DNA from: Lachnospiraceae bacterium | GTDB taxonomy: Bacteria > Bacillota > Clostridia > Lachnospirales > Lachnospiraceae | Length of the DNA: 41,893 nucleotides | Assembly (NCBI GenBank): GCA_024690825.1 | Contig: JAILOK010000068.1 | Location: 1-41,893, forward strand | Reading direction: 5' to 3' | Shown: piece after piece, positions 3,373 to 5,672 of the stretch | Layout: the number at the start of each line of letters is the position of its first letter | Position numbering within the stretch: position 1 is the stretch's first letter | The notes under the pieces: model-generated | Databases searched by the model: none | What the model was told of the DNA's origin: nothing | The model's input: only the letters and a program-made list of their open reading frames with translations | Program-made: the position numbers and the translations under genes

Positions 3373-3870
3373 ATGCTGAGTTTTGATTGGTTTAATTTTA
3401 TCTGTATGATAATAAACCTGCTCATACTTTATTTTCTGATGAAAAAATTTCTTTTCGGCAGGGTGAACAGGATCCTTGACGAGAGAAAAAAGGAAATAGA
3501 GAACGGGTATCTTGAGGTTGAGGAAAAAAAGAAAGAAGCTGAAAAACTGGGTGAAGAATACAAGGCGCATCTGGCTGAGGCAACTTATGAAGGAGAGAAA
3601 AAGAAAAAAGAAGAATCCCTTCGTGCCGCAGTTGAGTATAACAGGATGATCACCGAGGCAAACGAAAAGGCTGGGGATATCATCAAAAAAGCCAGAGAAA
3701 CAGCCAGATATGAAACTCAGCGGGCGGTACTCGAACAGGAAAAAGAAATGAGATCTCTCATATTGTCTGCCGCGGCAAAGATAGCAGGATCTAAGGGACC
3801 CGTAAATGATAATGAGTTATATGACAGGTTCTTGGAAAGCGCAGACAGTAAAAACGGAGGAAACAAATGA
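3373..3870 (+). CDS. atpF: ATP synthase Fo subunit b
   Basis: This is the peripheral-stalk subunit. The 165-residue protein has one N-terminal membrane helix (about residues 5-27), the usual arginine-containing hinge (FGRVNRILDERKKEIENG), then a long highly charged coiled coil. The C-terminal end carries LILSAAAKIAGSKGPVNDNELYDRFL, the usual delta-contacting region of b. Nothing in it resembles the missing N-terminal half of delta. It has a good AGGAGG site and overlaps the next gene by 4 bases (ATGA). Confidence 0.92.
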   Translation: MLSFDWFNFICMIINLLILYFLMKKFLFGRVNRILDERKKEIENGYLEVEEKKKEAEKLGEEYKAHLAEATYEGEKKKKEESLRAAVEYNRMITEANEKAGDIIKKARETARYETQRAVLEQEKEMRSLILSAAAKIAGSKGPVNDNELYDRFLESADSKNGGNK

Positions 3871-5672
3871 CGGATGAGCCGGAAATGCTCGATGAGGTCA
3901 AGGACCATATCGAAGCTACGCTCCAGTATGTGACAAAGCCTGATGAAAACAGGCTTAAAGGCATAGAAGAGTTTATCAAAAATAAATACGGCGTTTCGGA
4001 TGTTGTATTAGAGTTAAAAGAAAACAAGTCGCTCAAGGGCGGCTTTATACTGCGTGTGGAAAATGAGGAGTATGACTGGAGCAACAGAGGCAGACTGAGG
4101 CAGCTTCGAACTCTCCTCGAAAACAGGGAATATGATGTCAGCGTAGAGAATAAACCCGGAGATATCGTATCGATACTGCGGGCGCAGATAGAAGATTTTA
4201 AGCTGCAGGCCGAGAACCAGGAAATAGGATTTGTTTTGAGAGTCGGTGACGGCGTTGCCATGATAGAAGGAATAGACCATGCTTTTTACGGAGAAATAGT
4301 TATCTTTGAAAACGGGATCAAAGGCATGGTCATGAGCATAGAGAGAAAAAGGACGGGCATCATGCTCTTCGGAGATGAGGATGATATCCGGGAAGGAATG
4401 AAAGTAGCAAGAACCATGTCCGAGGCCGGCATAGAGGTCGGAGATGATCTGCCGGGAAGAGTGATAAATGCGTTGGGCGATCCGATAGACGGTAAAGGCA
4501 GAATAGAAAAAAACGGATTCAGGCCGGTGGAACACCCTGCTCCGTCCATAGTTGAAAGACATCCCGTGAATACTCCCATGGAAACAGGGATACTTGCGAT
4601 CGACAGCATGTTTCCGATAGGACGCGGACAAAGAGAACTGATCATAGGAGACAGACAGACCGGAAAGACATCCATAGCCATAGATACCATCATAAACCAG
4701 AAGGGTAAAGGGGTGATCTGTATCTATGTTGCCATAGGCCAGAAGGCATCCACTGTTGCGAAGGTGGCACAGATCCTGGAAAACAAGGGAGCCATGGAGC
4801 ATACCATCATAGTGAGCGCGACCGCAAGCGAACCTGCGTCAATGCAGTATATTGCTCCCTATTCCGGAACAGCCATAGCCGAATACTTTTTGGATCAGGG
4901 AAAGGATGTACTGATTGTTTACGATGATCTGAGCAAGCATGCGGTTGCTTACAGAGAGATTTCCCTGCTGCTGGGAAGATCACCGGGAAGGGAGGCATAT
5001 CCGGGTGATGTGTTCTACCTTCATTCAAGGCTTCTTGAAAGATCGAGCAGACTGAAAGAAAGCCTGGGAGGAGGTTCGATCACGGCGCTTCCCATCATTG
5101 AAACACTGGAAGGAGATGTGTCGGCATACATACCGACCAATGTGATATCGATAACCGACGGTCAGATATTTTTGGAGGAAGACCTCTTTTTTGAAGGAAT
5201 AAGACCTGCGGTGAATGTCGGACTGTCCGTATCCCGTGTGGGAGGAGCTGCCCAGTGTAAGGCAATGAAAAAAGCAACCGGGGCCTTAAGGATAAATCTT
5301 GCCCAGTTCCGCGAGATGGAGGTATTTACCCAGTTTTCTTCGGATCTTGATCCCGCGACCAAGGAGCTGCTCGATAACGGACGCGCCCTGATGGAGATAC
5401 TGAAGCAGAATGTAGGAAATCCTCTTTCCATGCCGGAGCAGGTCATAACGCTTGTTGCGGCAAATGAAAAACTCTTTATGGGGATAGAGCTTGACAGGGT
5501 CAAGGAATTTCAGACAGATCTGTTAAACGAAATAAAGGAAAATTACGAGAATATAATCAGCGAACTGAACATCAAAAAGGAACTCCCTGACGGATTCAGG
5601 GATGTGATAATAAAAACGGTCAGGGATTATAAGGAAAAATGGCTGGCGCAAAAGATGTCAAAAACAGAATAA
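3867..5672 (+). CDS. atpA: ATP synthase F1 alpha subunit with fused delta C-terminal domain
   Basis: The 601-residue protein carries a complete alpha subunit from about residue 93: the N-terminal segment GDIVSILRAQIEDF, P-loop GDRQTGKT at 261-268, and the VGLSVSRVGGAAQ arginine-finger region. In ordinary alpha chains the P-loop starts near residue 169, so about 92 residues are extra. That extension (LKENKSLKGGFILRVENEEYDWSNRGRLRQLRTLL, split here by family comparison) resembles the C-terminal domain of the delta/OSCP subunit, whose hallmark is a D/N-x-S-L-x-GGF-x-x-R-V stretch followed by D-x-S-x-R-x-x-L. No separate atpH lies in the operon and the six-helix N-terminal domain of delta is absent. 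Three alpha chains per F1 would mean three delta-like domains. It overlaps atpF by 4 bases and atpG by 34. Confidence 0.93.
   Translation: MTDEPEMLDEVKDHIEATLQYVTKPDENRLKGIEEFIKNKYGVSDVVLELKENKSLKGGFILRVENEEYDWSNRGRLRQLRTLLENREYDVSVENKPGDIVSILRAQIEDFKLQAENQEIGFVLRVGDGVAMIEGIDHAFYGEIVIFENGIKGMVMSIERKRTGIMLFGDEDDIREGMKVARTMSEAGIEVGDDLPGRVINALGDPIDGKGRIEKNGFRPVEHPAPSIVERHPVNTPMETGILAIDSMFPIGRGQRELIIGDRQTGKTSIAIDTIINQKGKGVICIYVAIGQKASTVAKVAQILENKGAMEHTIIVSATASEPASMQYIAPYSGTAIAEYFLDQGKDVLIVYDDLSKHAVAYREISLLLGRSPGREAYPGDVFYLHSRLLERSSRLKESLGGGSITALPIIETLEGDVSAYIPTNVISITDGQIFLEEDLFFEGIRPAVNVGLSVSRVGGAAQCKAMKKATGALRINLAQFREMEVFTQFSSDLDPATKELLDNGRALMEILKQNVGNPLSMPEQVITLVAANEKLFMGIELDRVKEFQTDLLNEIKENYENIISELNIKKELPDGFRDVIIKTVRDYKEKWLAQKMSKTE

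What the first reader, a model, noticed from the sequence alone, without database searches (positions are those of the whole stretch)
3867..5672. ATP synthase alpha subunit carries a delta C-terminal domain, and atpH is missing
The operon order a-c-b-alpha-gamma-beta-epsilon has no delta gene. The alpha chain is about 92 residues longer than normal at its N-terminus (P-loop at 261-268 instead of about 169). The extension contains the SLKGGFILRV...YDWSNRGRLRQL pattern of the delta C-terminal domain, the part that binds subunit b. The delta N-terminal domain, whose job is to hold the alpha N-termini, is absent and would not be needed if delta is covalently part of alpha. Three alpha chains would give three delta-like domains per F1, so the peripheral stalk either uses one of them or differs in stoichiometry. 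Similar fusions may already sit unremarked in databases.
Basis: partly seen in the sequence, partly recalled or inferred. Interest (0 to 1): 0.85.

Follow-up and report, generated by a model that had tools for sequence, protein, structure and literature searches.

The report
Natural delta–alpha fused ATP synthase
In this anaerobic bacterium the part of the ATP-making motor that holds the outer stalk is permanently joined to the motor's three alpha subunits, the same arrangement that engineers recently built to give an ATP synthase up to three stalks and a lower driving-force threshold, so it is a natural candidate for such a machine.

Summary
Residues 6-83 of the 601-residue alpha subunit match Pfam OSCP positions 94-171, the delta C-terminal domain (E 2e-9). 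A complete alpha, with its N-terminal helix, follows. The 99.4%-complete genome shows no other delta.

It is not a local oddity. In-frame delta-alpha fusions occur in at least 61 of 299 sampled genomes of the window's family and elsewhere in the phylum. Of 235 operons classified, 76 carry CTD-only fusions, 32 full-delta fusions, 1 a possible b-deltaCTD-alpha fusion, 122 separate deltas, 4 other. A tree of 209 operons implies about 22 origins of fusions without the delta N-terminal domain (at least 10 after collapsing nodes below 0.99). No separate delta examined is CTD-only.

The architecture is that of the engineered Bacillus PS3 deltaDeltaN-alpha enzyme (PDB 9jc1; PMC12229609), which carries up to three stalks and a-subunits and doubles H+/ATP; its three alpha chains top the structure search. 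That paper already noted such a fusion in Acidaminococcus fermentans, so the window is a new member of that kind. New, by my searches: the breadth, the full-length intermediates, the recurrent loss. Stalk number in nature is unmeasured.

The parts
3867..5672 (+). atpH-deltaN/atpA: delta C-terminal domain fused to a complete alpha subunit (601 aa)
3882..4115 (+). delta (OSCP) C-terminal domain, residues 6-83
   Evidence: Pfam PF00213 positions 94-171; AlphaFold block pLDDT 83-89 over residues 11-80
4116..4154 (+). linker, residues 84-96; about 3 residues longer than in engineered 9jc1
   Evidence: alignment to 9jc1_I; lower pLDDT there
4155..4196 (+). alpha N-terminal helix, residues 97-110, retained
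   Evidence: TIGR00962 start; helix H97-110 in the model
4647..4670 (+). alpha P-loop GDRQTGKT, residues 261-268
   Evidence: translation
3856..3860 (+). GGAGG, likely ribosome-binding site 6 nt before the fusion's ATG
   Evidence: sequence
3373..3870 (+). atpF, subunit b (165 aa); stop overlaps the fusion start (ATGA)
   Evidence: PF00430 6.1e-17
3112..3333 (+). atpE, subunit c; lacks the Gln and Ser/Thr of Na+ c-rings (motif recalled), so predicted H+-coupled
   Evidence: PF00137; sequence
2413..3099 (+). atpB, subunit a (TTG start, uncertain)
   Evidence: PF00119
5639..6517 (+). atpG, subunit gamma
   Evidence: PF00231
6520..7914 (+). atpD, subunit beta
   Evidence: PF00006, PF02874, PF22919
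7907..8323 (+). atpC, subunit epsilon, both domains
   Evidence: PF02823, PF00401

Best explanation
This is an F-type ATP synthase in which the stalk-binding C-terminal domain of delta has become the N-terminal domain of alpha, and the delta N-terminal domain, which normally caps F1 on its axis, has been deleted. Each of the three alpha subunits therefore carries its own docking domain for a b2 stalk. Most likely the enzyme works like the engineered PS3 deltaDeltaN-alpha enzyme: more than one b2 stalk, each with an a-subunit, can be mounted on one F1, which raises the ions moved per ATP and lets ATP be made at a low driving force. Shown here: the fusion, the missing domain, the absence of another delta match in the assembly, and repeated independent evolution. 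Shown for the engineered homologue only: multiple stalks, multiple a-subunits and a doubled H+/ATP. Inferred: that the natural enzyme assembles more than one stalk in the cell, and that low driving force is the selective reason.
For: Domain evidence. No other OSCP match in the genome. PDB 9jc1_I is the best sequence match to residues 1-278 (E 4e-58, residues 21-278, both domains; natural linker about 3 residues longer than the engineered one). The three 9jc1 alpha chains are ranks 1-3 of the structural search, and the paper reports up to three stalks, a 2.2x and b 1.8x, and H+/ATP 5.8 against 3.0. The fusion is wide and repeated: in-frame in at least 61 of 299 genomes in the family sample (listing cut; the window included), 53 of 294 in the order, 27 of 293 in the class, 8 of 299 in the phylum; the draws overlap and the thresholds differ. 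NTD loss: 76 CTD-only, 32 full fusions and 1 possible triple fusion; about 22 origins, at least 10 after nodes below 0.99 are collapsed. No sign of an internal start that would make free alpha: 12 of 104 fusions against about 13% expected. Delta domain under purifying selection: dN/dS below 0.2 in all 9 of 14 pairs where dS could be computed, for example dN 0.081, dS 1.01 between window and L268. Operon order conserved in 106 of 106 complete fused operons.
Against: No stoichiometry, activity or structure of any natural member was measured here or found. In the engineered enzyme only 26% and 8% of cryo-EM particles had two and three stalks, 51% had one and 15% none, and ATP-driven proton pumping was lower than wild type. 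Full-length fusions (32) are hard to explain if stalk multiplication is the reason for fusing, since three axis-capping domains cannot all sit on the axis; their NTD is not visibly decayed against separate deltas (31 against 21 operons, p 0.27). Conservation of the alpha N-helix relative to the core differs little between classes (ratios 2.61 separate, 2.49 full, 2.43 CTD-only), so it does not discriminate.
Confidence: 0.62

Rival explanations
1. Single-stalk enzyme: the fusion only tethers delta covalently; one of three delta domains binds the one b2 stalk and two stay idle, because a and b are limiting or Fo admits one a.
For: Fused operons have the ordinary one-gene complement of a and b (one b ORF in 107 and one a ORF in 105 of 108 loci). 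Half of the engineered particles (51%) had one stalk. Full-length fusions exist and would be sterically limited to one axis-capping domain.
Against: In PS3 the same architecture assembles extra stalks and a-subunits. Recurrent deletion of exactly the symmetry-breaking domain is what a multi-stalk enzyme would need, though simple redundancy would also allow it.
Confidence: 0.3
2. Mixed alpha: free alpha is made from the same gene by internal initiation or by proteolysis, so that only one of three alphas carries the delta domain and normal stoichiometry is kept.
For: Would avoid crowding in the full-length fusions.
Against: No enrichment of start codon plus Shine-Dalgarno near the native alpha start: 12 of 104 against about 13% expected. 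The window has no in-frame ATG, GTG or TTG between residues 65 and 123. Proteolysis was not testable.
Confidence: 0.07
3. Assembly or annotation artefact, or a decayed gene.
For: The window genome is a 138-contig assembly.
Against: The same kind of junction is open in 108 of 235 classified operons, including single-contig genomes G803, G597 and G872; dN/dS is low; catalytic motifs such as the P-loop are invariant in A2.
Confidence: 0.01

Closest known systems
Engineered Bacillus PS3 deltaDeltaN-alpha FoF1 (PDB 9jc1; Ueno et al. 2025, PMC12229609)
   Same: Delta residues 105-178 fused to the alpha N-terminus, delta N-terminal domain removed; top sequence and structure match.
   Different: Man-made, with a short Gly/Ser-rich linker seen in the alignment and the epsilon C-terminal domain removed; the window enzyme keeps a complete epsilon and has an evolved linker about 3 residues longer.
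Acidaminococcus fermentans F-ATP synthase and UniProt G4Q3K6, A0A1I2C5T3 (named in PMC12229609, Discussion)
   Same: Natural delta-alpha fusion with the delta N-terminal domain missing; proposed there as multi-stalk.
   Different: A different lineage (Negativicutes, recalled). I did not see those sequences or the supplementary figure. Phylum relatives L351-L353 may be of that kind (a guess) and fall apart from the window's clade.
Mycobacterial b-delta fusion (NCBIfam PRK13428, named 'subunit B/delta'; delta/b Rosetta Stone in PMC5709465 passages)
   Same: Delta fused to a neighbouring stator subunit.
   Different: Fused to b, not alpha; the NTD is kept (recalled).
V/A-type ATPases
   Same: More than one peripheral stalk, each docking on the outer head of the hexamer (recalled).
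   Different: Different subunits; a separate V/A-type operon is present in the same genome.
N-type F-ATPases
   Same: Operons without a delta gene (unit order given in PMC5709465 passages).
   Different: Here delta's C-terminal half is present, the gene order is the ordinary one, and alpha scores TIGR00962 (732 bits, cut-off 484) above the alternate-type model TIGR03324 (594, cut-off 750).

Membership tests
F-type ATP synthase | a, b, c, alpha, beta, gamma, epsilon with family domains | tested here: met
F-type ATP synthase | separate delta (OSCP) subunit with N- and C-terminal domains | tested here: not met
   only the C-terminal domain, fused to alpha; so it is filed as a variant of the F-type with a fused, trimmed delta
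Natural deltaDeltaN-alpha fusion enzymes (as described in PMC12229609) | delta C-terminal domain fused to the alpha N-terminus | tested here: met
Natural deltaDeltaN-alpha fusion enzymes (as described in PMC12229609) | delta N-terminal domain missing | tested here: met
   (one OSCP match in an assembly 99.41% complete)
Multi-stalk FoF1 | more than one b2 stalk and a-subunit per alpha3beta3 | not testable with these tools
   shown only for the engineered PS3 enzyme
Multi-stalk FoF1 | H+/ATP raised above c-ring size divided by three | not testable with these tools
   needs equilibrium measurements
N-type F-ATPase | alternate-type alpha, beta-epsilon-first operon, no delta sequence | tested here: not met
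   TIGR03324 below cut-off; order a-c-b-alpha-gamma-beta-epsilon

The most novel reading that the evidence does not exclude
[quoted passage not shown] Some lineages may run such an H+ enzyme beside an ordinary single-stalk enzyme of Na+ type.
Probability: 0.5. Interest if true: 0.95.

Novelty: new member of a known kind. Interest (0 to 1): 0.8.

Why it matters
The ATP synthases known so far have a single a-subunit, and ion use per turn was taken to be set by the number of c-subunits (both as stated in PMC12229609). The engineered enzyme showed that this can be changed, and its authors suspected natural examples. This census supplies many natural candidates, a graded series (separate, full fusion, trimmed fusion) and close sister pairs that differ in the capping domain. 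That makes the question of whether nature builds multi-stalk ATP synthases, and what they do for cells living on little energy, directly testable. The window's genome carries complex-I-like hydrogenase genes (read as Ech), an RnfD/E-family gene and a V/A-type ATPase, which fits a cell that gathers small ion gradients (inference).

Tried and rejected
Internal translation start giving free alpha: tested over 104 fusions, no enrichment. Relaxed alpha N-helix after NTD loss: raw entropies suggested it (1.70 separate, 1.97 full, 2.53 CTD-only), but after normalising to the core within a main clade there was little difference, in the opposite direction, so I dropped it. Decay of the NTD in full fusions before its loss: not seen. 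A replacement cap protein: none of the 109 fused loci has a second delta-like ORF on the alpha strand within the fetched stretch (earlier); other kinds of cap were not searched for, and elsewhere in some of these genomes a conventional delta exists (11 of 41 fused genomes of the genus), though not in the window's. The 93-aa ORF after epsilon has a homologue near only 1 other of the fetched operons (L268, a close relative). The apparent NTD remnant in L020 (43-172 with a stop) was the reading frame under b, not delta. L080 (138-aa separate delta) has a shortened but present NTD; L049's delta ORF is 193 aa but its NTD was not recognised by my profile. The b-deltaCTD-alpha triple fusion in L221 is in frame, but a one-base error in an A run cannot be excluded and only one genome of that genus is held. 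Loci dropped from the tree: 26 of 235, namely 4 without a recognised delta C-terminal domain and 22 lacking beta or gamma in the stretch (21 separate, 1 fused). Literature searches; of the three papers opened, only PMC12229609 mentions a natural delta-alpha fusion; the rest were seen as listings. Supplements could not be read. The second structure job was not used.

Full report
What is there. The window holds a complete F-type ATP synthase operon at 2413-8323 (+), order a-c-b-alpha-gamma-beta-epsilon. The alpha ORF (3867-5672, 601 aa) begins with a delta C-terminal domain: Pfam OSCP positions 94-171 of 172 match residues 6-83, E 2e-9, or 8.8e-11 with the first 104 residues alone. NCBIfam delta models agree in register, though below their whole-protein cut-offs. 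A delta profile made here gives 86.8 bits. The alpha model starts at residue 96 at its position 3, so alpha is whole. The fusion has a likely ribosome-binding site and overlaps the b stop. The P-loop and many other alpha positions are invariant across a 50-row alignment of fusions.

No other delta. OSCP searched over the own genome at E<=10 gives this match only (99.41% complete, 138 contigs). The genome's six PF00006 matches are the alpha and beta of this operon, the A and B chains of a V/A-type operon, a flagellar-type ATPase and a Rho-type protein (the last names by my reading of the ORFs). It also carries an RnfD/E-family protein and a complex-I-like hydrogenase cluster read as Ech.

How widespread. 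In the window's genus (48 genomes), 39 carry a CTD-type fusion match (a few cut by contig ends or with stops in the read-through), 2 a fusion keeping most of the NTD, 5 only a conventional separate delta, and 2 no match; 11 of the 41 fused genomes also have a conventional delta elsewhere. With a profile of the junction (A1, 13 rows), counting only matches over both domains in a frame of 570 aa or more without a stop: family sample, at least 61 of 299 genomes in 60 of 298 genera, the window and a congener included (listing cut, so a lower bound; 2 more cut at contig ends); order, 53 of 294; class, 27 of 293; phylum, 8 of 299. These draws overlap, were limited to genomes at least 85 or 90% complete, and used different thresholds. 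The family is inferred to be Lachnospiraceae from record titles of the nearest named contigs (L031, L032).

Three states. Of 235 operons classified, 122 have a separate delta beside alpha, 32 a full delta fused to alpha, 76 only the C-terminal domain fused, 1 a possible b-deltaCTD-alpha fusion, 3 an adjacent ORF with only an NTD match, and 1 no recognised delta. Of the 122 separate deltas, 121 match the NTD profile in the same ORF (weakly in L361 and in the 138-aa L080), and the remaining one (L049) is 193 aa long, so none is CTD-only. Most of these operons were gathered with a fusion-based profile or query, so the proportions are not natural frequencies.

Evolution. A FastTree of 209 operons on alpha, beta and gamma (1194 columns), midpoint rooted, mixes trimmed and full fusions. 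If a lost NTD cannot be regained, trimmed fusions arose about 22 times on this tree: 19 from full fusions and 3 from separate deltas, or 15 and 7 if re-splitting is made costly. The minimum is 15, 12 and 10 when nodes below 0.95, 0.98 and 0.99 are collapsed. Sister cases include L190 with L186/L334, L214 with L323, L211 with L205, and L194/L201/L217 with L182; some fall within one genus by the tool's genus codes (g39, g19). Fusion itself also seems to have arisen more than once (L064, L317, L318-L320, L351-L353 and L354 lie among or beside separate-delta operons), though several of those nodes are weak; within the main clade, repeated fusion and re-splitting are both possible.

Constraint. Between the window and L268 the delta domain has dN 0.081 and dS 1.01, near alpha (0.058, 1.26), while the linker is free (dN 0.46, dS not computable). 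Over 14 pairs the delta domain has a higher dN than alpha in 13 and a lower one in 1 (L254/L267); its dN/dS is below 0.2 in all 9 pairs where dS could be computed. The linker from delta domain to alpha is short, median 13 residues by profile bounds.

Structure. AlphaFold of the window protein with 50 rows gives mean pLDDT 79.4; the delta domain is confident (blocks 83-89), the linker low, the alpha N-helix 97-110 present, and stretches 1-10, 247-260 and 422-459 poor. Foldseek against the PDB puts the three alpha chains of 9jc1 at ranks 1 to 3 (572-576 columns), ahead of ordinary alphas; rmsd is 7.8-9.2 A, so this shows matching domains and order, not an exact arrangement. By sequence 9jc1_I is the best match to residues 1-278; with the whole-protein profile two ordinary alphas score higher.

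What the closest thing does. I read parts 1-3 of the text, the Discussion and a set of passages of PMC12229609. Deleting the delta N-terminal domain and fusing the rest to alpha gave PS3 FoF1 with up to three b2 stalks and a-subunits, about two on average by gel, H+/ATP 5.8 against 3.0, and cryo-EM classes 0/1/2/3 stalks of 15/51/26/8%. The authors argue that the N-terminal domain limits stalks to one by sitting on the axis, and note a natural fusion lacking it in Acidaminococcus fermentans and two UniProt entries. So the idea of natural multi-stalk enzymes is in print. In the listings of nine literature searches and the three papers opened I saw no report of the distribution across Clostridia, the full-length fusions or the repeated loss; the library lacks most subscription journals. 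A genome survey of butyrivibrios counted all F1 subunits as present in all 62 genomes (PMC4478896 passages); if fused alphas were among them, annotation passed over the fusion (inference).

Ion. The window's c subunit has Ile where Na+ c-rings have Gln, and Ala after the ion-binding Glu (motif recalled), so H+ is likely. Of 106 fused operons with a readable c, 63 show Ile/Ala, 33 Met with Thr or Ser, 3 Gln/Ser and 7 others. The seven conventional enzymes of the genus that I looked at have Glu and Thr there, a two-carboxylate pattern recalled from a Na+ enzyme. The phylum relative L351 has Gln/Ser, so fusion is not tied to H+.

Judgement. The fusion, the missing domain and its repeated origin are well supported. 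That the native enzyme mounts several stalks is the most likely reading, because the same architecture does so in PS3, but it rests on analogy. A single-stalk enzyme with two idle docking domains is the main rival.

Noticed in passing
L221:3929-6292 (G107): One open frame joins subunit b, the delta C-terminal domain and alpha (787 aa). If real it would force three b chains per F1; a one-base assembly error cannot be excluded.
   Followed up: partly
L251, L253, L255, L262, L263, L265, L266 (genus relatives): Conventional ATP synthases with a separate delta and a c subunit carrying Glu and Thr at the ion-site positions (Na+-like by recall), beside the fused enzyme in several of these genomes.
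   Followed up: partly
L368 (G000:C44): A V/A-type ATPase operon in the window's own genome.
   Followed up: partly
L370 (G000:C105): A complex-I-like hydrogenase cluster, read as Ech, in the window's own genome; an RnfD/E-family gene lies on C31.
   Followed up: no
L033:4783-5258: Two tandem open frames both match subunit c in one full-fusion operon.
   Followed up: no
L176 (G316): A full fusion with about 84 further residues in frame after the alpha domain (758 aa).
   Followed up: no
window:8333-8614: A 93-aa ORF after epsilon without a Pfam match; a homologue near only one other fetched operon, L268.
   Followed up: partly
L080 (separate delta ORF, 138 aa): A Falkowbacteria-titled contig has a separate delta with a shortened N-terminal domain.
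   Followed up: partly
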